Below the pieces are notes generated by a model. That model was not told the DNA's origin, ran no database searches, and saw only the letters and a list, made by a program, of their open reading frames with translations. Source: Lachnospiraceae bacterium (lineage in GTDB: Bacteria > Bacillota > Clostridia > Lachnospirales > Lachnospiraceae). From it: a DNA stretch of 64,000 nucleotides. The position numbers were made by a program, and so were the translations under genes. Where the stretch lies: contig JAFTWC010000044.1 of the NCBI GenBank assembly GCA_017465475.1, forward strand, positions 1 to 64,000, written 5' to 3'. This document shows positions 9,001 through 42,637 of this stretch, one piece after another (position 1 is the first letter of the stretch; every line of letters begins with the position of its first letter).

Positions 9001-10886
9001 TAAGACTCATTAAAGTGATAATAAGTATAGTTCGTACTCTGAACATTGGAAAGTCTTGCTGCAACACTGCCACCGGCAAAGGCATATTGTCCGATTTCCG
9101 TAACATAGTCTGCACCGTTAATCTTAACCAATGCGTTACATCCTGCAAAGGCACACTCTTCTATTCTTCTGACACTTGCCGGAATTGTGATTTCCAACAG
9201 AGTCGTATTATAGACGGTGTAACTACTTGCGGTATCGGTTCGGGTTACACTAAGAATCGTTCCGTATTCATCATAGTTATTCTGAATTCTGTTTGTAATG
9301 AAAGACACCTCACCATTACCCAATACGCCAAATTGATAACGGTTGTTGACACCGGAAGGTAAATATTGATAATATCCATACGAAGGTCTTTGATATACCT
9401 TCTGAGAATTCGTATTTATCATACCTCCGGTCAAAAAGGCATTTGTAACATACCAATCCATTGCACCTCCGATGGTTTCCACCGGATAGGTCGTTCCGTT
9501 ATAAGTGATGCTTTCCGGGAATGTAAGTTCCGTAATAAGCGCCGCTTGTGTGGCTACACTATAGCCATCATACATTTTCGGATGAACATAACAGGCACTC
9601 CCTGCTTCATCACGAAAATACCATTCATTCCCCTTTGCGTCGGTTCCGGTTAAATATGTTTGAACGCCGGAATTATTTTTCCAAAGAACATTATATCCAA
9701 TCTGAGTATAGAGATCTGTGTTCGGTTTAAATTTATCTATGGTCGGAAACAAGGAATCAATCGTATATCCCTTATCGGTTGTATAATAACGATAATTTTC
9801 CTGATAAGTATGCGTGGACATCGGAATTGGTGTGGGTGTAGGCATAGGGGTTGGTGTGGGCATCGGTGTGGGTGTTTCTTCAGATGGTAAGACTACTGTG
9901 GGTGTTACTCCAGGACTGGCTTTTTCGAAATGAGCAGTCATAGTGACGTTATAAGCAGGCATGATAAAAGAATCGGAATCCATTGTTCCGGTCCATCCTG
10001 TAAATTTCCATCCTGTATTCGCACCGGCCCATAAAGAAACACTCTCTCCTACAGAATAAGTACCGCCACCACCTGCAACACCACCGCTATCATCGGCAGG
10101 GTCAGTTAACACAGTTACCGTATAGGTAGGAATAGGAGTAACCGGTTCTGCTTTCGGAAGAAGCGCAGATGCATCAATCGGAGTGTCGAAATAGTTGGCA
10201 AAATTCTCCTTTGTTGTTTCGGCCCAACTTCCACCGGGATAAACTGCAGATACACCATTATCTCGTATGTCTTCTAAGGAAGTATGATGGTTCCATTCTT
10301 TCCATGTTCCATCGTCTTTCTTTTCTCTTGTGGTAAAAGTCTGACTGAAATACAACGTACCTTCTGTATTGCCATCTAAAACTTTGTCTAAGGCCATTTT
10401 GAAATCGACTGCGGGAATAGTAAATGTGGTTTGGATTTTATTCCCTTCTGCCGGATGGTCAACTCGTGTGGCATTTGAATCGTTGCTATTAAGTTCAAGT
10501 TGAACAAAGGAGTCTCTATCGGCTGTCGGGTTACCATTACTGTTTGTAGTTCCGAGGATAATGCTTGCCGTATCATAAGAGAAGGTTGCATCAGGCCTAT
10601 GTTCATAGGTTGTTGTTGCAACAAAGTTTCCGTCTTTATCAAATCCGTAGGAATATCCATCATCAGATTGATGAACAAGCGTGACATCGCCTACACCTTC
10701 GATATATATTGTACCAATACCTACAGTTCCTTTTGGTTCGGGCGTCGCTACGGTTGCAGGTGTGAGTGTCGCTCCTGCTGCATAAACAGGTGTAGACTTT
10801 TCAGATACCGGCATTATAGGAAGTAAGGATACAATTGTACCAAACAATGCTAAAAATGCCAGATTACGTTTCTTTTTATATTTCAT
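3024..10886 (-). CDS. Giant secreted BspA-type LRR / InlB-repeat surface protein
   Basis: A 2,620-residue exported protein. The N-terminal signal has a KYKKKR patch, a hydrophobic core and a likely cleavage after VYA. In order it shows a beta-sandwich-like N-terminal region, a divergent InlB/Flg_new_2 domain (about 255-330, ending MTAHFEK), a Pro/Thr linker near 345, BspA-type LRR_5 repeats (about 470-700, such as IPASVRRIEECAFAGC), a long region of repeated blades with 'DKNGN/DEDGN' turns resembling RCC1-like propellers (about 800-1400), and several Listeria-Bacteroides InlB repeats (about 1430-1850, FNGWNTRPDGTGT...LYAQW). A C-terminal region of unknown fold ends MSHGIY. I see no LPXTG signal, SLH or choline-binding repeats, so attachment is unexplained. 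The ATG at 10886 is preferred over 10901 because GGAGGG sits 7 nt upstream of it, inside the longer reading frame. Likely an adhesin or matrix protein. Confidence 0.85.
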   Translation of the reverse strand: MKYKKKRNLAFLALFGTIVSLLPIMPVSEKSTPVYAAGATLTPATVATPEPKGTVGIGTIYIEGVGDVTLVHQSDDGYSYGFDKDGNFVATTTYEHRPDATFSYDTASIILGTTNSNGNPTADRDSFVQLELNSNDSNATRVDHPAEGNKIQTTFTIPAVDFKMALDKVLDGNTEGTLYFSQTFTTREKKDDGTWKEWNHHTSLEDIRDNGVSAVYPGGSWAETTKENFANYFDTPIDASALLPKAEPVTPIPTYTVTVLTDPADDSGGVAGGGGTYSVGESVSLWAGANTGWKFTGWTGTMDSDSFIMPAYNVTMTAHFEKASPGVTPTVVLPSEETPTPMPTPTPMPTPTPIPMSTHTYQENYRYYTTDKGYTIDSLFPTIDKFKPNTDLYTQIGYNVLWKNNSGVQTYLTGTDAKGNEWYFRDEAGSACYVHPKMYDGYSVATQAALITELTFPESITYNGTTYPVETIGGAMDWYVTNAFLTGGMINTNSQKVYQRPSYGYYQYLPSGVNNRYQFGVLGNGEVSFITNRIQNNYDEYGTILSVTRTDTASSYTVYNTTLLEITIPASVRRIEECAFAGCNALVKINGADYVTEIGQYAFAGGSVAARLSNVQSTNYTYYHFNESYAITMPFTTRMSEYNQTRVLSAYLPFPTFGKLRLIQAHGFYGRENLRTVVLPAGLQHVEDGVFEKCKLYSIEVPNLTMTIEGDWTTLGSKGPVKKEERTILITEPDSSAMDYGLEYIAYYALRCGYDVTYINNFEPEETFTTRAELRENYTLVEQNMAASDYSSDGTISLDSEGNLWHTPYNAEIPTKIDLDGKVIGLERVPMTSASTNFKNYLTAYPELESYSAVPGDALHAYMENGEVYRLTGRTPTNVTSWEKLAVPIGSSSHQWSIIHSSYGDEDSSYNESSNSLYNSGRGGTQYLFYINSDGDIEYMEQGKYKQTGPSYSDYYGASDGQPYLEWDGFGDASPKKVTMPAGVKFQKIFTTDSQIGGGYDVVYESKYGKGTFGGSYQLICTTTASSILPTIYGVDTTGKCWVGYAQKSVTATGFGPFKNNRYSFAYNGASDFTEEFKASYAVSGADYVWVESDIMDLWTANHPYTDSILGLTSIDESNAYAIDKNGNFLLLAGEYPAVTRTVIASGDFVFHKATEDSAYLYLFDKNGTYWLTSPKISMTHYFGRDQISYVTDATYDSSASFAPVSLGDVVPNYFFGTSSGTSNTKFITHTSNTSNHTVVTIKDSENRYWQLCMAKDCSPTPQVLYNPEQRIIKSQHGNFNGDPFFAYLLENGEIWLLYAGNHSYSMTYEGFSYEQFYFYSVLGPNKYGTNTSPVKVSGNHKFVDMMMCLNYGGTTHGAYPKMFSLAMDEDGNVYRTGYTTGEGGLLDDQKYDGFIRTDNIDWNGAYKTYISRSTSSEEVSREIPIFAGYHYEDTLYGCMFQRENHVFLNWNQEQDNRGVLLYPGDTLEISGPTTLYAQWEPVCNKIRYHPNGGSGSLMEDTVTTPPAGNKVTLRKNSYYMGGYTFNGWNTRPDGTGTSYADEAEFMMKNGTTILYAQWKKLDKYTIKVAENEEDVRPVTISSQKNLEYNQMYRIPNALADRTCTVGYKINGDTYQTLHGMSTTPKWVTSQPFTEEYTKAVQKFLHWMLYEEEEVNVKYNYLHKFYLPGSKANQMTRNPSYASVLFPLWSGKDSEVKLPSIQCDGYSLIGWSESATDKDENFVYAPEGSGYLYKPRKDNTVLYAHYEPREYKIELMAEADGAAQEDIIQEQKTVWMTFDKVLPSVIPPESSVYTFMGYYDKLDEAGLPAEDATMYYGADGNPALDESGNPLVWRIYDRSIMKLYAYWSEEPYGTVTEPEEPIVVQGGETDAMVQLYADDRNPATGAETDELPYYVADYVTEEGATEKGAIPSTEPIAVHAKTKACIVSCRFEQKSGVEMIRAHVTVPYRTQYENPKDGSLVVSERKTKTVQVLVPKAWSYWELAEGGVYFPEKVVVKNKSLAGESIELPVQWNTSDATKKPEYEVTVYGEKEQHISFDSYDEDGTPSMYVTVAGEEYIVSSVPGQMPAVDKQLLAAAKKAARKEPVQLTVRSDEVKVAGVTLLSDEPSADGNGAKPQQEVMDSFREIIPETAYSQIYCSGILLDSAIANGRYETESYAIYRLAEQNTGETVTKSITVTENDAEMGAIEGWDTIEVPIEKTNEINIHTPVICLPELAGNHEELYQGKELPEDGSILVLDEEGRYSEFILFVNNTGYHSEKRGYKERNYAEFLAKKDGNVRNEVCFPFDVWLDTGNDNIKENDCLIPTGEWYVLGAEKQRFYLPVMIKEGSYEFVFRSVAVNGEEKESSSEWVRNTKEENYVAENRLKVYVVGRLFGFVVTGINGTEAWDEVTKQGLCYTVGPKPPEYSLRDTLPLRKGVHPVYRNLGGLPRGGTLSFSVKSVGVLCGEGATVQAEPHLFTVENGCYREVDVYYEEETEKGTILRQWNPEEQRLFLEGREEKTGMWQWNGVFTLPKKLYVTEKGTDVWSYRKLHGLSFTESFWLEDCELMLRFALQLKTSKKELLYYGMIPEEIVNNIWKIEAEVSYREDYDKRNFQIFGGETAVIYPGESISVGQMSHGIY

Positions 10887-10909
10887 ACGATTTCCCTCCA
10901 TTTCTTGGA

Positions 10910-10938
10910 ATTATAAAAAAGGTATAGTTTTTTGTACA
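10910..10938 (-). promoter_or_regulatory. Promoter of the giant surface-protein gene
   Basis: On the minus strand TGTACA (10933-10938) and TATAAT (10910-10915) are 17 bp apart, 24 bp or more upstream of the ATG at 10886. An inverted repeat AGGTATA-N12-TATACCT (10920-10945) covers the spacer and the -35 box, suggesting repression or other control by a dimeric regulator. Confidence 0.6.
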
Positions 10939-11078
10939 TATACCTATTAGTTAATTTTATGGTTAAGTTTTTGTGTTGTTAATGGGAGAATGAAAGAATT
11001 TTTGAAAAAAGGATACTTTCCGGCCAATAGCTCCGATGACTTGATGGTTGCTTACAACATACTGATTTGCAGAAAATA

Positions 11079-11106
11079 TGGGAATATACATTTCTGTATA
11101 TTCCCA
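11079..11106. terminator. Intrinsic terminator after the PemK/MazF-like gene
   Basis: A perfect 12-bp stem TGGGAATATACA with a TTTC loop lies in the 324-bp gap between the giant gene and the toxin-like gene. On the minus strand it is followed by TATTTTC. It sits about 105 bp past the stop at 11211. The rest of the gap holds only the promoter of the giant gene. Confidence 0.7.
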
Positions 11107-11210
11107 TTTGAAAAAAGCCTTTTACAGCCAAATGCTCTGACGAGCTTGATAACACATTTCTATAATATGATTATAGACTCTGTTTTAATGAATGTCAATC
11201 CCCAAATCCA

Positions 11211-11624
11211 TTATTTTGATGATTTCCGCAAATCCAAATGTTTTACTAAACATTGATTGATATCCTCTATTTTTGTTGGATTGAGTTTTGAACCATCTCC
11301 TTCAATCGGTAAAACCGTAACCTTTTCGCCGTATACATTACTTGAAAAACCTTGAACTATAACAACTAAATGATTATCACTCAACTCGCTTCCTGCATTT
11401 TGAGTAATTTGTGCATTATATATTTCACCCTTGAATACTTTTATCGGATGGTACTTTTTGACATGTGAATCACGTGATTTTCTACTTTCGATTGATTTTT
11501 CATCTATCTCGCAGATTTTTGGAATCTGTCTTACGCAAGCAATTATCTTATCTACATTGCTATTTGTGATGATTTGAGTCACATCGTTCACATGACTAAA
11601 ATACTGCTTTAGTCTATCTATCAT
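11211..11624 (-). CDS. PemK/MazF-like toxin domain protein, no antitoxin seen
   Basis: The 137-residue product has a helical N-terminus (about 1-65) followed by a PemK/MazF-like beta-barrel: FKGEIYNAQITQNAGSELS, then NHLVVIVQGFSSN and a VTVLPIEGD strand. These match the GDI/GSE..G..HPVVIIQ pattern of MazF-family endoribonucleases found as single genes in clostridia. The usual C-terminal helix (S.L...QI.TIDK.RL) is not visible: the frame ends LRKSSK. Another frame continues EIIKIMDLGIDIH after the same point, so a truncation or frameshift is possible. The start at 11624 follows GGGAGG; the longer frame begins at 11657. No antitoxin-like gene is adjacent on either side. MazF members cleave mRNA at short motifs, but activity here is unproven. 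Confidence 0.55.
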   Translation of the reverse strand: MIDRLKQYFSHVNDVTQIITNSNVDKIIACVRQIPKICEIDEKSIESRKSRDSHVKKYHPIKVFKGEIYNAQITQNAGSELSDNHLVVIVQGFSSNVYGEKVTVLPIEGDGSKLNPTKIEDINQCLVKHLDLRKSSK

Positions 11625-11698
11625 TTTTCCTCCCATTAATTTACGATTGTAAAACAAACTCCCCCTATAAATAGGAGTGACAGTATTATACTTCGCCT

Positions 11699-13066
11699 TT
11701 ATTCTACATTAATAACATCTGCAGATTCTAAATCAATCCACATACATGGACGAATACCTTGTTCATCAACAACTTGGTCATTACACATTGAGTTTTTATA
11801 CATCGTACATGCATTATGAGAATATGCATAAGAATCCGTTCTTAAAAACCACTCAACAAAGTCTTTATCAGGCATATCTCCATGAATGAGTTTTGCATAA
11901 TCCGTAGCACTGGTTGTGATGGAGTCTTTGTAGAAATAATCGTAAAGTGTTTCCCCAGTTCCCATTACTGTAGAGGTTCTTTCTTTTAAATAATACTTTC
12001 GGATTTCTTCTTCACTCATAACATAAATACATTCCTTCGTATCCGGCCCAGAAAGACTTTCTCCTCTCATTCTTTCAGGAATCTCGATATCTCTAATATG
12101 TGCCGGATTCTTTACCGTACTCTTAAGGATATTCTGTCGTTCCTCTTTCGTAAAAGATGTGGTATAAAAATAATCATTTAGCCATTCTCTTAAAGAACTA
12201 TCTATCCAAAGAGCTTTCGTTCTGTTTGTATCCTTTCGATTATCATCTTCATAGAACTGTTTGGAGTCAATGATATACTCTGTCATTACAAAGGCAGTAT
12301 TATCTTTAATATCCACAACTGTCCATTCTATCGGTTCATAAATGAAATACTTATATTCATATGGTTGACTATTCTCATAATCCCACCATTCCGGATATGT
12401 ATTTTCCCATGTAGCAATTAATGGACCAAATGCATACATTTCATTCTGACCTGTCCATTTACGTTTGATTTCTTCGGACCTTAAAACTCGCTTAATTCGC
12501 TTATCTCCCACCATTGCAATATTATTCTCATCATAATTTGCATTGATAACATCAGCCGTTAATTCATCTACCGTAATTTCAGTCTTCGGATGTTCTCCAA
12601 AAAGGAAATTATCACCAATTCCGATTCCTTTAATGGCTGCCGGAGTCGGAGTAGGTTTCGGAGTGGCAGTCGGCTTTGGTGTAGGGGTATTCGTAGGCTT
12701 TGGAGTAGCCGTTGGCTTAGGAGTAGGTGTATTTGTCGGAACCGGTGTAGGTGTTGGTTCCGGTGTAGGTGTATTGGTTGGTTCCGGCGTAGCAGTCGGT
12801 TCAGGAGTTGCTGTAGGCTCCGGAGTCGGAGTTGGTGTAGATGTTACCGGAACCATGGTAGGAGTCGGCATAAGAGTCGGTTCCAATACTTCCGTAATCA
12901 ATGGCATTTCTGTAGGAGTCGGCATCTCTGTCGGAAGTACTTCCTTCGTCGGAGCTACTGTGGGAGATGTCATTACAGGAGTATTTGGCTGTGTTCCTGC
13001 ACATCCGGTAAATAATAAAGTTATAAGTAATAAAACTGTCATTCGTTTTGTCTTTTTCATAAGCAT
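11699..13066 (-). CDS. Lipoprotein with Pro/Thr repeat stalk and DUF6273 domain
   Basis: The 455-residue precursor has a type II signal (KKTKRMTVLLLITLLFTGC), with lipobox LFTGC placing a lipidated cysteine near residue 22. About residues 35-145 are a degenerate six-residue repeat of the type TPTPEP/TATPKP, which forms an extended wall-spanning stalk. The C-terminal domain (about 150-455) contains EPIEWTVVDIKDNTAFVMTEY, SSLREWLNDYFYTTSFTKEE and a final RPCMWIDL, which are hallmarks of DUF6273, a Clostridia surface domain of unknown function. The ATG at 13066 is chosen because AAAGGA lies 6 nt upstream. It has its own promoter at 13103-13131. Together with the giant protein and the pilus operon it forms a surface-display region. 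Confidence 0.85.
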   Translation of the reverse strand: MLMKKTKRMTVLLLITLLFTGCAGTQPNTPVMTSPTVAPTKEVLPTEMPTPTEMPLITEVLEPTLMPTPTMVPVTSTPTPTPEPTATPEPTATPEPTNTPTPEPTPTPVPTNTPTPKPTATPKPTNTPTPKPTATPKPTPTPAAIKGIGIGDNFLFGEHPKTEITVDELTADVINANYDENNIAMVGDKRIKRVLRSEEIKRKWTGQNEMYAFGPLIATWENTYPEWWDYENSQPYEYKYFIYEPIEWTVVDIKDNTAFVMTEYIIDSKQFYEDDNRKDTNRTKALWIDSSLREWLNDYFYTTSFTKEERQNILKSTVKNPAHIRDIEIPERMRGESLSGPDTKECIYVMSEEEIRKYYLKERTSTVMGTGETLYDYFYKDSITTSATDYAKLIHGDMPDKDFVEWFLRTDSYAYSHNACTMYKNSMCNDQVVDEQGIRPCMWIDLESADVINVE

Positions 13067-37600: not shown

Positions 37601-38062
37601 TTATCTAATTCCCACACAGAAGCTTTCTTCTTCTGTGATTTCAAATGGTTCCCTTAGAAATCCAAAGCAATGAACTGTATCATTTCCCGATAACATATGT
37701 TCCAACCTTTTCTTTGTCAACGGAAACGTTACCATCTCCAATGCGTCTTGTTTTTTCACCCGCCGAACCTCCGAGCTTTCCTCACTGCTTGCCAGTTCTC
37801 CCTTGATATACTTACAAAAAAAATCAATATTTACAACATTCTTTTCCACATTCTTACATACTCCGATAAACCCTGTAATTTCCACCTCTACTCCTGTTTC
37901 TTCTTTTATCTCTCGGAGTAATGCCTGCTGAAGTGTTTCTCCCGGCTCTACCATTCCACCGGGATATTCCCATCCACGCCACGGACAATTGATTAGCAAT
38001 ATCTCCCCATTCTCATTCGTCACCAATCCGGCTACAGAAACAAAATGCGTATAATTCATCAT
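37601..38062 (-). CDS. Nudix hydrolase
   Basis: A 153-residue hydrolase with the full Nudix box GMVEPGETLQQALLREIKEETGVEVEI (GX5EX7REUXEEXGU) at about residues 36-62. It should cleave nucleoside diphosphate linkages of a substrate such as an oxidised nucleotide or nucleotide sugar. The start at 38062 follows GGAGG by 6 nt. The promoter at 38082-38110 gives a transcript that begins only about 13 nt before this ATG, ruling out the longer frame. It heads a Nudix-DeoR-XRE operon. Confidence 0.9.
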   Translation of the reverse strand: MMNYTHFVSVAGLVTNENGEILLINCPWRGWEYPGGMVEPGETLQQALLREIKEETGVEVEITGFIGVCKNVEKNVVNIDFFCKYIKGELASSEESSEVRRVKKQDALEMVTFPLTKKRLEHMLSGNDTVHCFGFLREPFEITEEESFCVGIR

Positions 38063-38081: not shown

Positions 38082-38110
38082 ATAATACAACATAATCGGT
38101 CATCAGTCAA
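38082..38110 (-). promoter_or_regulatory. Promoter of the Nudix-DeoR-XRE operon
   Basis: On the minus strand TTGACT (38105-38110) and TATTAT (38082-38087) are 17 bp apart. The predicted transcript starts about 13 nt before the Nudix ATG, so the phased array at 38162-38607 lies upstream of it. Confidence 0.75.
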
Positions 38111-38161: not shown

Positions 38162-38607
38162 TACCATGAGTTTTCCCCTCCTTAACATCCTCATGGTACA
38201 CCTTTTACTTCACTTTTTCCTTTTACCATGAGATCTTCTTTTTCTATTCTTCATCATGGTAAGTAATTTGTACATTTCTTTTTTCTTACCATGATCAGAC
38301 TTCATATCATCATTTCTCATGGTACAAAAACAGCTTTTTCTGCACGATTCATGGTAATCGTTCAAATACTTTTCTATTTTGTACCATGAACACCCACTTT
38401 GTTCTCCTGTATCATGGTAATTTTTCAAACGCACTTCTCTTTTGTACCATGAGCATCTACCTTGTTCTCCTGTATCATGGTAATTTCTCAAACGCACTTC
38501 TCTTTTGTACCATGAACACCTACTTAGTCCTATTGCATCATGGTAATTTCTTAAACACACTTCTTCTTTGTACCATGAAAAATTCCTTCACTTTTCATTT
38601 CATGGTA
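38162..38607. repeat. Phased array of 15 copies of an 8-bp motif in alternating orientation
   Basis: TACCATGA occurs at 38162, 38224, 38287, 38382, 38445, 38508 and 38571; its reverse complement TCATGGTA occurs at 38191, 38254, 38317, 38349, 38412, 38475, 38538 and 38600. Motif starts are 29-33 bp apart, about 31.5 on average (three helical turns), giving a 62-63 bp unit. One TACCATGA is missing between 38317 and 38349, where about 31 bp was lost. Three units (38382-38570) are nearly identical; the others share little beyond the motif. Spacers are pyrimidine-rich on the plus strand. The array lies between the purL terminator and the Nudix promoter. The 8-mers look constrained, so a protein-binding array is my favoured reading; a structured RNA is the alternative. 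Confidence 0.9.
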
Positions 38608-38743: not shown

Positions 38744-38776
38744 GACGGGACCTTGCAGCTATCGCAAGGTCCCGTC
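38744..38776 (-). terminator. Intrinsic terminator of purL
   Basis: Perfect 13-bp arms GACGGGACCTTGC and GCAAGGTCCCGTC, followed on the minus strand by TTTTTGC, 25 bp past the purL stop. The stretch 38608-38743 between this hairpin and the array contains no recognisable feature. Confidence 0.92.
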
Positions 38777-38800: not shown

Positions 38801-41800
38801 TTACTTAAAGTACTTCACACCGGAAGCAAAGATTCTCTGATCCTGGTCACCGTAGATGTTTACAGCTACGGAGTTACCGCGACGCTCGGAGTGAGCCATC
38901 TTACCAAGAACACGACCGTCCGGGCTGGTGATACCTTCGATTGCAAAGTAGGAGCCGTTCGGGTTGAAGTCTTCGTCCATGGTCGGGTTGCCGGCAAGAT
39001 CTACATACTGGGTTGCAATCTGTCCGTTTGCGGCAAGCTTTTCGATCCATTCCTTGCTTGCTACGAAACGACCTTCACCGTGGGAAGCCGGGATTGCGTA
39101 AACGCCGCCAAGCTCTGCCTCCATGAGCCACGGGGACTTGTTGGTAACAACCTTGGTGTATACAGACTTGGAAATGTGACGTCCGATGCTATTCATGGTA
39201 AGAGTCGGGGAATCCTCCTTCTGCGGAGTTACTTCGCCGTACGGTACAAGTCCAAGCTTAATAATTGCCTGGAAACCGTTACAAATACCGAGAACCAAAC
39301 CGTCACGCTGCTTTAACATATCATTTACCGCATCGGTAATCTTTGCGTTACGGAACGCGGTTGCGATGAACTTACCGGAACCATCCGGTTCGTCACCTGC
39401 GGAGAAGCCGCCCGGGAACATGAGAATCTGTGCATTACGGATTTCCTTCTCGAATGCGTCAACGGACTCTCTGATGTCCTGCTCGTTACGGTTACGGAAT
39501 ACTACAGTGCTTACTTCTGCACCTGCGTCACGGAAGGAGCGCATGGTGTCGTACTCACAGTTGGTACCCGGGAATACCGGAATAAATACACGCGGCTTAG
39601 CCACCTTATTCTTAGCTACATAAACAGTCTTTGCATCAAACAACGGATGATTAATCTTCTCTTCCTTTACATTGGATCTGGTCGGGAATACCTTTTCTAA
39701 CGTATTGGTCCAAGCATCCAGTGCTTCTTCCATGGTAACGGTCTCACCACCGTATACAAACATCGGTGCTTCGGTTACGGTACCTACAGTCTTGTAAACA
39801 ACACCGCTTTCGTTTAATGCATTCAGGCAATCCTTGGAAACTTCCGCAAGGATTTCACCGTAAGCCGGAGCAAATAACTCATGAGAGCTTACTGCATCAG
39901 AGATTACTGCACCAAGGCGATTACCGAATGCCATCTTGGAAACAGCCTCAGCGATACCCTTTGCACCAAGAGCGTACATGGAAGCAATCTTTCCGCTCTG
40001 AGCCAGCTTCGTAATCTTGCTCATCTGTTCTGCAAATGCAGCGTAATCCGGAAGGTCATAAGAATCCTTCTTCATTGCGAACTTTACAAGTACATTACCG
40101 GACTTCTTAAACTCACCGGTTACCACATCAGAGGTCTTTGCCATATCTACAGCAAAGGATACCAGTGTCGGCGGAACATCAATATCCTGGAAAGAACCGG
40201 ACATACTGTCCTTACCGCCGATGGACGGAAGGCCAAGCTGAACCTGTGCCTCAAATGCACCGAGAAGTGCCGCCAGCGGTTCACCCCAACGCTTCGGATC
40301 GGTACCTAAGCGACGGAAAAATTCCTGGAAGGTGAAACGAATCTTTGTATGATCACCACCTGCTGCTACAATCTTAGCAACAGAGGAAATTACTGCATAA
40401 ACTGCACCGTGGTACGGGCTCCAGGAAGAAAGGTACGGATCGAAGCCGTAACTCATCATGGAAACTGCCTCACTGTCACCGTCAAGTACCGGCACCTTTG
40501 CAATCATGGTCTGTACCGGAGTCATCTGATACTTACCACCGTACGGCATGGTTACGGTATTTGCACCGATGGAGCTATCGAACATCTCCACTAAGCCCTT
40601 CTTGGAACAAGTATTTAAATCTGCAAGCATGGAAAGCCACTCGCCCTTAATGCCGGTCTTACCGGAAAGTACGGTTTCTCCCTTTGCAGTCTTTCTGGTA
40701 ATACGGGAAGCGGTATAGGAAGCACCCTTCTTAAAGTAGCTGTCTTCCTTCTTCGGCATGGTAACCTCAGCAGTTGCCTCCTGATGTGCGCCGTTGGTAT
40801 CAAGGAAGGAACGCTTCAGATTAACGATTTCCTTACCTCTCCAAACAAGTACAAGACGCGGGTCCTCGGTAACTACTGCCACCGGAACTGCTTCTAAGTT
40901 CTCTTCTGCTGCAAAATCAAGCATCTTGTCCACGTCCTTAGCGTCAACTACGATAGCCATACGCTCCTGGGACTCGGAGATTGCAAGTTCGGTGCCGTCA
41001 AGACCTGCATACTTCTTCGGAACCTTGTCAAGTTCTACACGAAGACCGTCTGCAAGCTCACCGATTGCTACGGATACACCGCCTGCACCGAAGTCATTAC
41101 ACTTCTTAATGATGCTTGCCACTTCTTCTCTACGGAACAATCTCTGAAGCTTACGCTCCGTCGGAGCATTACCCTTCTGAACCTCTGCGCCGCAGGTGTG
41201 AATGGACTCAGCGGTATGTGCCTTGGAAGAACCGGTTGCACCGCCGCAACCGTCACGTCCGGTTCTGCCACCCATAAGGATGATTACATCGCCCGGATCG
41301 GAATTTTCACGGATAACGTTCTTTCTCGGAGCTGCACCCATAACTGCACCGATTTCAAGACGCTTTGCCACATAATTCGGATGATAAATTTCATCTACAA
41401 GACCGGTTGCAAGACCAATCTGGTTACCGTAGGAGCTGTAGCCGGAAGCTGCACCGGTTACAATCTTGCGCTGTGCAAGCTTACCCTCTAAGGTCTCCGC
41501 AATCGGAAGAGTCGGGTCAGCAGCACCGGTCACACGCATTGCATGATATACATAACCACGGCCGGACAACGGGTCACGGATTGCACCGCCAAGACAGGTT
41601 GCCGCACCACCGAACGGCTCGATTTCCGTCGGGTGATTGTGGGTTTCGTTCTTAAAGAAAATTAACCATTCTTCGGTTTCCTTCTTACCGTCCGGTCTGG
41701 TAATCTCAATCGGAACGATAATGGAACAAGCATTGATTTCATCGGACACTTCCATATCATCAAGCTTACCGTCTGCACGAAGTTTCTTCATACCGACTAA

Positions 41801-42637
41801 AGCAAGGTCCATAAGAGAAATGAACTTATCATCTCTGCCCTTATATAAAATCTCACGCTCTGCTACATACTTATCATAGGAAGCACGAATCGGAGCAGTA
41901 TAATCTCCCTCTTCAAAGGTTACATCCGTAAGCTCGGTAAGGAAGGTGGTGTGACGGCAATGGTCGGACCAATAGGTATCCAATACACGGATTTCAGTCA
42001 TGGACGGGTCACGCTTCTCATCGTCACGGAAATAGTTCTGAATGTGTAAAAAGTCACGGAACGTCATAGCAAGGTTAAGGGAATTGTAAAGCTCCTTTAA
42101 CTGTGCCTCCGGCATGGTTGCAAAACCGTCAAAGATAATAACATCTGCCGGATCTTCGAATACTGCCTCTAAAGTCTCAGGCTTTGCTTCTGCTGCTTCT
42201 CTGGAGTCTACCGGGTTGATACAGTAAGACTTAATTGCCTCTACTTCTTCCTTGGTCAATACACCGGATAATACATAGGTGGTAGCGGAACGAATCACCG
42301 GTTCTTCCGTCTCGTTTAAAAGCTTCACACACTGCTCTGCAGAGTCTGCTCTCTGATCAAACTGACCCGGCAAATACTCTACGGAGAAAACGGTATCTTC
42401 CGGACAAATCGGGAAGGTCTCTTCGTATACAAAATCTACCGGCGGCTCGGAAAATACGGTACCGAGTGCACGGGATACAGTCTCGTCACTTACATTTTCA
42501 ACATCATAACGGATTAAAACACGTACTGCGGTTACATTCTGAATGTTCAAATATTCTTTGATTTCATTCATCAACTCGCCGGCCTTTACAGCATACTCCG
42601 GCTTCTTTTCGGAATAAATTCTTCTAACCTTACTCAT
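38801..42637 (-). CDS. purL: Phosphoribosylformylglycinamidine synthase, single-chain
   Basis: Catalyses ATP- and glutamine-dependent conversion of FGAR to FGAM in purine synthesis. At 1,278 residues it is the long form, with the N-terminal PurS-like domain, two AIRS-type synthetase halves and a C-terminal glutaminase. Visible motifs include THNHPTEIEPFGGAATCLGG (about 330) with the FGAR/ATP-binding region, IGGKDSMSGS (about 815), and the class I glutaminase with the nucleophile in LGICNGFQAI (about 1,120) and the SHGEGRFV catalytic histidine segment. Usually Clostridia carry this form. A divergent LysR gene lies 185 bp upstream. No riboswitch was seen in the leader; an extended -10 (TGGTATACT) lies near 42692-42700. 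Confidence 0.97.
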   Translation of the reverse strand: MSKVRRIYSEKKPEYAVKAGELMNEIKEYLNIQNVTAVRVLIRYDVENVSDETVSRALGTVFSEPPVDFVYEETFPICPEDTVFSVEYLPGQFDQRADSAEQCVKLLNETEEPVIRSATTYVLSGVLTKEEVEAIKSYCINPVDSREAAEAKPETLEAVFEDPADVIIFDGFATMPEAQLKELYNSLNLAMTFRDFLHIQNYFRDDEKRDPSMTEIRVLDTYWSDHCRHTTFLTELTDVTFEEGDYTAPIRASYDKYVAEREILYKGRDDKFISLMDLALVGMKKLRADGKLDDMEVSDEINACSIIVPIEITRPDGKKETEEWLIFFKNETHNHPTEIEPFGGAATCLGGAIRDPLSGRGYVYHAMRVTGAADPTLPIAETLEGKLAQRKIVTGAASGYSSYGNQIGLATGLVDEIYHPNYVAKRLEIGAVMGAAPRKNVIRENSDPGDVIILMGGRTGRDGCGGATGSSKAHTAESIHTCGAEVQKGNAPTERKLQRLFRREEVASIIKKCNDFGAGGVSVAIGELADGLRVELDKVPKKYAGLDGTELAISESQERMAIVVDAKDVDKMLDFAAEENLEAVPVAVVTEDPRLVLVWRGKEIVNLKRSFLDTNGAHQEATAEVTMPKKEDSYFKKGASYTASRITRKTAKGETVLSGKTGIKGEWLSMLADLNTCSKKGLVEMFDSSIGANTVTMPYGGKYQMTPVQTMIAKVPVLDGDSEAVSMMSYGFDPYLSSWSPYHGAVYAVISSVAKIVAAGGDHTKIRFTFQEFFRRLGTDPKRWGEPLAALLGAFEAQVQLGLPSIGGKDSMSGSFQDIDVPPTLVSFAVDMAKTSDVVTGEFKKSGNVLVKFAMKKDSYDLPDYAAFAEQMSKITKLAQSGKIASMYALGAKGIAEAVSKMAFGNRLGAVISDAVSSHELFAPAYGEILAEVSKDCLNALNESGVVYKTVGTVTEAPMFVYGGETVTMEEALDAWTNTLEKVFPTRSNVKEEKINHPLFDAKTVYVAKNKVAKPRVFIPVFPGTNCEYDTMRSFRDAGAEVSTVVFRNRNEQDIRESVDAFEKEIRNAQILMFPGGFSAGDEPDGSGKFIATAFRNAKITDAVNDMLKQRDGLVLGICNGFQAIIKLGLVPYGEVTPQKEDSPTLTMNSIGRHISKSVYTKVVTNKSPWLMEAELGGVYAIPASHGEGRFVASKEWIEKLAANGQIATQYVDLAGNPTMDEDFNPNGSYFAIEGITSPDGRVLGKMAHSERRGNSVAVNIYGDQDQRIFASGVKYFK

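What the first reader, a model, noticed from the sequence alone, without database searches (positions are those of the whole stretch)
38162..38607. Phased array of 15 alternating 8-bp motifs with a three-helical-turn spacing
Seen directly: TACCATGA and its reverse complement alternate over 446 bp, motif to motif 29-33 bp, average about 31.5 bp (3 x 10.5). The motif and spacing are kept in units whose intervening DNA has diverged, while three units are near-identical over 63 bp. Spacers are strongly pyrimidine-rich on one strand. The array sits between a strong terminator and a promoter, so it seems not to be part of either gene. It is not CRISPR (8-bp repeats, alternating), not iterons of a known origin, and has no coding role I can defend. 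Inference: a cis-acting DNA site for an unknown filament-forming or clustering protein (partition, nucleoid, recombination or replication role), or a tandem-hairpin RNA.
Basis: partly seen in the sequence, partly recalled or inferred. Interest (0 to 1): 0.85.

Follow-up and report, generated by a model that had tools for sequence, protein, structure and literature searches.

The report
Dispersed, helix-phased DNA binding-site arrays
A gut bacterium carries about ten dispersed, mirror-symmetric DNA landing strips whose short repeated word and helix-locked spacing are kept while the DNA between changes; the word matches the control site of a widespread ATPase family that is a suspected anti-phage defence, which offers a handle on how those proteins touch DNA.

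Summary
In detail: 15 exact TACCATGA/TCATGGTA motifs at 38162-38607. It is one of ten such arrays found in this 3.07 Mb Lachnospiraceae genome. Motif pairs of this kind occur in 4 of 10 genomes of its genus; a three-motif pattern matched no other of 397 sampled family genomes.

The arrays are best read as double-stranded DNA elements, not RNA. In orthologous arrays motifs differ at 4.4% of sites, spacers at 39%; gaps are 1 bp, 20 bp, or half or whole units. Central gaps of 37, 57, 67-69 and 78 bp keep helical phase. Arrays are mirror-symmetric: motifs pointing inwards mostly follow T, outwards G.

New lead: TACCATGAAA-N21-TTTCATGGTA lies at the start of AAA_14-DUF4143 ATPase genes in 34 of 119 pattern loci from many phyla. 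PADLOC calls this family PDC-S01, a candidate phage defence. The three distinct such genes seen in the genus have phased repeats of other motifs upstream.

Best reading: dispersed sites for such an ATPase. No TACCATGA-specific ATPase gene was found here. ParB, REP/BIME, CRISPR and hairpin RNA are disfavoured.

The parts
38162..38607 (.). Phased array: 7 convergent units TACCATGA-N21/22-TCATGGTA plus one solo motif
38162..38198 (.). Outer unit 1 (N21)
   Evidence: terminal units are N21 in 35 of 42
38224..38261 (.). Unit 2 (N22)
38287..38324 (.). Unit 3 (N22)
38325..38381 (.). Array centre, 57 bp (11 bp, one helical turn, shorter than the common 68 bp), holding the solo motif 38349-38356 (minus strand)
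38382..38419 (.). Unit 4 (N22)
38445..38482 (.). Unit 5 (N22)
38508..38545 (.). Unit 6 (N22)
38571..38607 (.). Outer unit 7 (N21)
38744..38776 (-). Terminator-like hairpin behind the purL-like gene, between it and the array
38801..42637 (-). Neighbour: purL-like gene; its 3' end faces the array
   Evidence: ORF; name recalled from the sequence
38082..38110 (-). Promoter-like site (TTGACT-N17-TATTAT) before the next gene, outside the array
   Evidence: 2 found, 2.1 expected in shuffles, so only suggestive
37601..38062 (-). Neighbour: NUDIX hydrolase gene (start codon assumed)
   Evidence: PF00293

Best explanation
The array is a double-stranded DNA landing site for an oligomeric, sequence-specific DNA-binding protein. 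It is one of about ten equivalent sites dispersed over the chromosome. Shown: 8-bp half-sites in convergent units of 37-38 bp, about 63 bp (six helical turns) per unit, mirror polarity about a centre, centre lengths that differ by whole helical turns, and motifs and spacing conserved while spacers diverge. Inferred: a protein dimer contacts each unit, and neighbouring dimers assemble cooperatively on one face of the DNA from both sides of the centre. The binder I favour is an AAA_14-DUF4143 (COG1373, a recalled name; PADLOC PDC-S01) ATPase with TACCATGA specificity. Genes of this family carry TACCATGAAA inverted pairs at their starts in many phyla, and those seen in this genus carry phased multi-copy repeats of other motifs upstream. 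The physiological role (holding the ATPase on the chromosome, titrating it, or marking self DNA for a defence ATPase) is a guess. My split: DNA-level protein-binding array about 0.93; binder of the DUF4143 family about 0.5; any particular role 0.2 or less.
For: Ten arrays in G000; nine loci in G007, one a single unit and one a pair of units; three in G003 (one a single unit) and one two-unit locus in G005. The pattern read backwards as a control gives 0 in these genomes. Orthologous arrays, 9 comparisons at 5 sites: motif divergence 39/896, spacer divergence 1010/2564, gaps of 1 bp or 20, 32 and 62-64 bp; spacers of non-orthologous arrays differ at 58% and shuffled spacers at 64%. Terminal units N21 (35 of 42) against internal N22 (63 of 81), P = 1e-10; centre lengths 37, 57, 67-69, 78 bp in phase with the linker, P = 9e-4. 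Mirror polarity, P = 1e-16. No convergent pair with spacing 0-20 in the four array genomes, and only N21/N22 among the 41 and 40 pairs of G000 and G007 (range searched 18-26). ATPase link: 34 of 119 pattern loci have the pair within 71 bp of the estimated start of an AAA_14-DUF4143 gene; the 44 pairs in the 37 loci with a homologue are all N25, while the other loci spread over N18-26. Both sets favour A at motif position 10 and A or T at 11, outside the searched 8-mer. The three distinct family members seen in the genus have upstream repeats: TTCGGCTAAA + - + - at 27,34,27 (G007), an AAAATGTGCA-type repeat every 32 bp (G009), a direct repeat x4 at exactly 23 bp (G000 and G007 orthologues).
Against: No ATPase gene with a TACCATGA operator was found in G000 or G007: the exact N25 pair is absent from both genomes, and the two family members in the 0.90 Mb of G007 I read have other motifs. 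That is about 29% of the genome. The operator pair is N25, the array unit N21/22, and motif position 9 is A in 97% of operators but free in arrays. In a motif-independent sample of 28 promoters none has exact TACCATGA in the 250 bp upstream; a common motif there is CCTTGCAAAT-like, and only 15 of 28 show a strong inverted repeat. The family is very large, so an 8-mer match by coincidence is possible. One motif-variant pattern fits base pairing (see the RNA rival). No binding or expression data exist.
Confidence: 0.5

Rival explanations
1. Same kind of DNA element, but the binder is unrelated to DUF4143: a lineage-specific nucleoid, partition-like or silencing protein. The 8-mer match is coincidence.
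For: The DNA-level evidence stands without it, while no TACCATGA-specific ATPase gene was seen. Geometry is N21/22 against N25.
Against: The half-site matches at 8 of 8 plus A at position 10. DUF4143 genes of the same genus have phased repeats of the same style, one alternating 27,34,27.
Confidence: 0.4
2. REP/BIME- or MITE-like mobile DNA: intergenic repeats spread and kept by a transposase.
For: Alternating, regularly spaced, intergenic, as described for BIMEs (PMC2817692, passages read). Patchy presence in the genus. Different arrays do resemble each other weakly outside the motifs (58% spacer divergence against 64% for shuffled spacers; BLAST pairs at E <= 1e-5).
Against: Y1 transposases (the RAYT family) were not found in G000 or G007, the two array-rich genomes, though G003, with three loci, has one. 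No near-identical copies at different sites, while several sites are shared between species. Motifs are conserved against diverged spacers within orthologues.
Confidence: 0.05
3. A structured RNA of tandem hairpins, used as a protein sponge.
For: Convergent motifs could pair. By my hand count (the contig-37 array left out), 17 of 25 units with a change in one motif would keep a G-U pair on the G-rich strand, and three units carry a compensated G-C change.
Against: No excess pairing at inner loop positions 1-8. Promoter-like sites are at the chance level in the two arrays checked, and the window array lies behind a terminator. Helix-phased centres. The variant bias can come from regional strand skew.
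Confidence: 0.03
4. Recent tandem duplication without function.
For: Three 63-bp units in the window are near-identical, and some G007 arrays also hold near-identical units.
Against: Most other units share little beyond motif and spacing; in orthologues motif divergence is about nine-fold below spacer divergence.
Confidence: 0.02

Closest known systems
AAA_14-DUF4143 (PADLOC PDC-S01) ATPase gene operators
   Same: TACCATGAAA inverted pairs at the gene start; phased multi-copy repeats upstream of the family members seen in this genus
   Different: Operators sit at the ATPase's own gene with N25; the arrays are dispersed, not beside such genes in the loci read, with N21/22 and up to 9 units
BIME / REP clusters (E. 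coli and others)
   Same: Alternating orientation, regular spacing, intergenic, several units (PMC2817692, passages read)
   Different: 8-bp half-site instead of the REP palindrome; about ten arrays, where REPs usually exceed 100 copies per genome; no Y1 transposase found in G000 or G007; mirror polarity and helix-locked centre
Plasmid centromeres with repeated sites (F sopC, pSM19035 parS)
   Same: Repeated binding sites for one protein-DNA complex; pSM19035 parS needs at least four contiguous repeats for full activity (PMC9499535, passages read)
   Different: Chromosomal, about ten loci, 63-bp units; the genome's ParB has canonical parS. sopC details are recalled
Neisserial NIME / dRS3 arrays
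   Same: Intergenic arrays built of short inverted repeats and varied intervening elements (PMC3898611, passages read)
   Different: dRS3 has almost 700 copies and 30-160-bp RS elements; here spacing is fixed to about 1 bp

Membership tests
BIME / REP-RAYT | REP-associated Y1 transposase in the genome | tested here: not met
   PF01797: 2 of 10 genus genomes match (G003, G008); none in G000 (88.8% complete) or G007 (94%)
BIME / REP-RAYT | Alternating, regularly spaced, intergenic units | tested here: met
ParABS centromere (parS) | Site of the chromosomal ParB | tested here: not met
   G000, G005, G007 and array-free G002, G004, G006 each have 3 parS-like sites (at most 1 mismatch) within 2 kb of a ParB match; G008 has 2; G003, G001 and G009 gave 0 sites, and G003 no ParB
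CRISPR array | Direct repeats of about 20-50 bp with acquired spacers | tested here: not met
   8-bp alternating motifs; spacers of orthologues diverge by point changes
Structured RNA (Rfam) | Match to a known family at gathering score | tested here: not met
   0 matches in the window
Structured RNA (hairpin array) | Covariation of paired positions | tested here: not met
   inner loop positions 1-8: none exceeds shuffles. Within the 8-bp motifs variation is too low for a strong test; three compensated units
AAA_14-DUF4143 ATPase operator | TACCATGA half-site in inverted pairs | tested here: met
   true of one subset of the family, not of the 28-promoter sample
AAA_14-DUF4143 ATPase operator | Pair spacing N25 | tested here: not met
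   arrays N21/22
AAA_14-DUF4143 ATPase operator | Lies at the start of an AAA_14-DUF4143 gene | tested here: not met
   no array in the loci read is next to such a gene; nearest about 3.3 kb away in L190 and L207
AAA_14-DUF4143 binding site | Binding by such a protein | not testable with these tools
   needs EMSA or pull-down

The most novel reading that the evidence does not exclude
PDC-S01 (AAA_14-DUF4143) ATPases, one of the commonest candidate phage defences, are sequence-specific proteins that assemble on helix-phased DNA arrays. In this Lachnospiraceae lineage one such ATPase has a chromosome-wide set of dispersed, mirror-symmetric arrays that hold or license it on self DNA; lineages that lost the system lost all arrays.
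Probability: 0.3. Interest if true: 0.92.

Novelty: categorically new. Interest (0 to 1): 0.85.

Why it matters
None of the element families I tested fits a set of about ten dispersed, mirror-symmetric, helix-phased site arrays whose motifs and spacing are conserved. It is a ready-made, testable DNA ligand. If the DUF4143 link holds, it also gives a DNA target for PDC-S01, which a 2026 survey calls the fourth most common defence across all prokaryotes, with experimental validation pending for most such candidates (PMC12988326, passages read). Binding by repeated sites as such is not new; the set, its symmetry and the link are.

Tried and rejected
Hairpin RNA: disfavoured by the pairing test and by helix phasing. 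AT-tract bending signal: the spectrum of A/T in spacers peaks near harmonics of the 63-bp unit (z = 2.0 at 10.5 bp and 3.8 at 10.25; 1.9 at 10.5 in coding controls), so I make no bending claim. Coding: the 116-aa ORF through the array follows from 63 = 21 codons; unit steps of 62, 63 and 64 bp in other arrays break any frame. parS and ParB, Y1 transposases and Rfam: no support. Phages: 49 viral stretches with a pair, none with more than one, read as chance. Autoregulated binder gene through pairs at other spacings: one hit in G005, a perfect hairpin unrelated to the arrays. Same architecture with another motif: not found in 0.62 Mb of G004, 0.32 Mb of G009 and 0.37 Mb of G011 and G013. There, at a looser threshold, the detector gave one irregular alternating chain of 4 and several same-direction repeats of the coding tandem type. 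This does not exclude arrays elsewhere in those genomes. Remnants of arrays in G004 at three sites (purL, rplA-rplJ, the locus): none seen by eye. Target-site duplications: none obvious by eye. My first view that different arrays share no spacer sequence was wrong on recheck: there is weak similarity.

Papers: ten searches, for the motif letters, BIME, helical phasing (two), sopC, dRS3, Lachnospiraceae repeats, DUF4143, COG1373/AAA_14 and PDC-S01. One paper holds the word DUF4143 (passage read). The listings showed no paper on these arrays or on a DUF4143 operator. Searches matched 2,002, 578 and 1,561 papers, of which I saw 20, 25 and 10 titles, so absence in print is not shown. The library holds open-licence papers only.

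Full report
WHAT IS THERE. The window array has 15 exact copies of TACCATGA or its complement at 38162-38607; the window has 18 in 64 kb against a mean of 1.7 in shuffles. Read as convergent units TACCATGA-N21/22-TCATGGTA it holds 3 units, a 57-bp centre with one solo motif, and 4 units. It lies between a terminator-like hairpin behind the purL-like gene (38744-38776) and a promoter-like site before a NUDIX gene, both on the minus strand. The search of the own genome (3,067,975 bases, 81 contigs) gives 41 convergent pairs on nine contigs and 0 for the pattern read backwards. A second pattern adds a tenth locus on contig 37, with a variant motif TACCATTG/TCATGGTA in all five units. Four of the ten G000 arrays end within about 340 bp of a contig end (contig lengths); IS-like sequence follows some of them by my reading.

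DISTRIBUTION. Of 116 genomes searched, six match: G000 (41 pairs), G007 (40), G003 (8), G005 (2), all of one genus, and two genomes outside it with one pair each. The other six genus members have none. A three-motif pattern (N22 and N25 fixed, up to 3 mismatches) matches 1 of 397 family genomes, the own one; only one other genus member, array-free G001, was in that sample. G003 and G007 correspond to public Lachnospiraceae MAGs RGIG7215 and RGIG5355 (inferred from equal contig lengths and coordinates). An unrooted purL tree puts G000, G003, G004, G005, G006 and G007 on one side of a branch with support 100; an rplJ-region tree without G005 has the matching split at 89; the order inside is weak. 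Array-free G004 and G006 fall among array-bearing species, so arrays were probably lost there; gain by transfer is not excluded.

ORTHOLOGY AND SELECTION. BLAST of the loci shows shared flanks at several sites: next to the rplA-like gene (G000, G003, G007, G005), and next to pheT-like, purL-like, DHFR-like and sigma-factor genes (names recalled from sequence or from Pfam). At one site G000 has six units and G007 a single unit (L191 and L209). In nine pairwise alignments of orthologous arrays at five sites, motif positions differ at 39 of 896 and spacer positions at 1010 of 2564. Gaps are 1 bp, or 20, 32 and 62-64 bp. A motif position counted as such if the 8-mer had at most one mismatch in either sequence, which favours the motifs a little, and the nine comparisons are not all independent. 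A wider count gives spacer divergence of 39% for the 9 orthologous pairs, 58% for 162 non-orthologous pairs and 64% for shuffled spacers (40 pairs), so different arrays share weak, position-dependent spacer similarity (BLAST pairs).

ARCHITECTURE. Over 23 array loci, terminal units are N21 in 35 of 42 and internal units N22 in 63 of 81 (Fisher P = 1e-10); linkers are 25 (63), 26 (25) or 24 (2) bp. A frequent form is 3 units, 68-bp centre, 3 units (393-395 bp). Of 13 arrays with a centre, lengths are 67-69 in nine, 57 in two (one the window), 37 and 78 in one each: all close to the linker plus whole helical turns (P = 9e-4 on the length classes; I chose the test after seeing them, and some arrays are orthologues). 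Motifs pointing to the centre are preceded by T in 92 of 122 (G in 14), motifs pointing away by G in 68 of 114 (T in 30), P = 1e-16 over 19 arrays. Positions 10 and 11 after the motif start favour A. Pairs at other spacings are rare: convergent N0-20 gives 0 in the four array genomes, divergent N0-23 gives one, an unrelated perfect hairpin.

DNA, NOT RNA. Inner positions of the supposed stem show no excess pairing. Phasing to 10.5 bp has no meaning in a folded RNA. By my hand count, without the contig-37 array, 17 of 25 units with a change in one motif would keep a G-U pair on the G-rich strand; array skew follows regional skew (19 of 20 same sign), so strand mutation bias can explain it. Three units with both changes remain a weak point against me. 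In my reading of the ORF tables I saw no array between divergent genes; they follow gene 3' ends in tandem or convergent settings (unannotated ORFs, some arrays cut by contig ends).

CANDIDATE BINDER. A protein from an Algoriphagus stretch (L020:4013-5155) is AAA_14 plus DUF4143. Homologues occur in 37 of the 119 stretches; in 34 the pair lies from 5 bp inside to 71 bp upstream of the estimated start, and three (L015, L033, L088) are truncated or unclear. The 44 pairs in those 37 loci are all N25. The pairs of the other 82 loci spread over N18-26, 5-20 per spacing; without the five loci of array genomes, 5-17 per spacing over 77 loci. Record titles span Bacteroidetes, Verrucomicrobia, Omnitrophota, Nitrospira, Cyanobacteria, Acidobacteria, Kuenenia, Myxococcales and proteobacterial MAGs among others. 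After dropping eight of nine Algoriphagus, 29 operators give TACCATGAAA(A/T). In a sample chosen without regard to the motif (23 of the plasmid hits, and 5 of 8 viral loci, dropping two near-identical and one partial), 15 of 28 promoters have an inverted repeat of at least 9 of 10 pairs near the start codon, against 2.3% of shuffles and 1 of 28 windows inside genes. A common motif there is CCTTGCAAAT-like, related to TACCATGAAA, and none has exact TACCATGA.

INSIDE THE GENUS. tblastn over the array loci, 0.90 Mb of G007, 0.62 Mb of G004, 0.32 Mb of G009 and 0.37 Mb of two other genera finds four family genes, two of them orthologues. Each has upstream repeats: CTCACGGGTT-like, four times at exactly 23 bp (L190 and L207); TTCGGCTAAA + - + - at 27, 34, 27 bp, up to 2 mismatches (L394), the same alternating layout as the two-unit TACCATGA arrays (29, 33, 29); AAAATGTGCACTTTT-like palindromes every 32 bp, three whole and one half (L310). 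Chains of four or more occur in 0 of 155 shuffles; in the 28 other promoters, 3 have chains of three and none of four. None of the four genes has TACCATGA upstream, and no TACCATGA-specific ATPase gene was found; about 70% of G007 and most of G000 were not read. The four proteins tested match PADLOC PDC-S01. No solved structure covers the protein (RecA and a P-loop protein, over short stretches). The winged-helix and PD-(D/E)XK-like segments I see in the consensus are my reading, not tested.

CONCLUSION. The array is a conserved, helix-phased, mirror-symmetric DNA element present about ten times in this genome, best read as a protein-binding site. The best lead for its binder is a PDC-S01 ATPase; this rests on motif identity and on phased repeats upstream of this family in the genus, and is not proven. 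Its role is open.

Noticed in passing
L394:4330-5754; L310:9376-10950; L190:11782-13300; L207:9548-11080: AAA_14-DUF4143 (PDC-S01) ATPase genes each carry phased repeats of a private motif upstream (27/34/27, 32, 23 bp spacings).
   Followed up: partly
L020, L024, L058, L060, L063, L107 (Algoriphagus): Two 41-bp near-palindromes TACCATGAAAatcg...TTTCATGGTA at the ATPase gene, 76 bp apart start to start in five of the six (98 bp in L058), one of them over the start codon.
   Followed up: partly
L232 (G004), L230 (G006), L234 (G003), rplA-rplJ gap: MITE-like DNA with ends GAATTCGGGTGTCAAAGC / GCTTTGACACCCGAATTC in G004, and parts of it in G006 and G003, in the same intergenic gap that holds an array in some species.
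   Followed up: no
L189:8429-8465: The last motif of this array is interrupted after TCAT by what looks like an insertion sequence with a transposase start.
   Followed up: no
L187:8719-8928; L185:5480-5640: Short repeats directly behind two arrays, unrelated to the motif.
   Followed up: no
L201:8046-8386: Array with a uniform variant motif TACCATTG (5 of 5 units) on one side only and a 78-bp centre; may bind a variant protein or show concerted change.
   Followed up: no
L133:2134-2274 (viral contig): Five alternating copies of TATGTCA at 44,24,45,21 bp, the only other 5-copy alternating chain that the detector reported in its first 2.05 Mb.
   Followed up: no
window 9832-12808: Imperfect 18/24/42-bp tandem repeats.
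   Followed up: no
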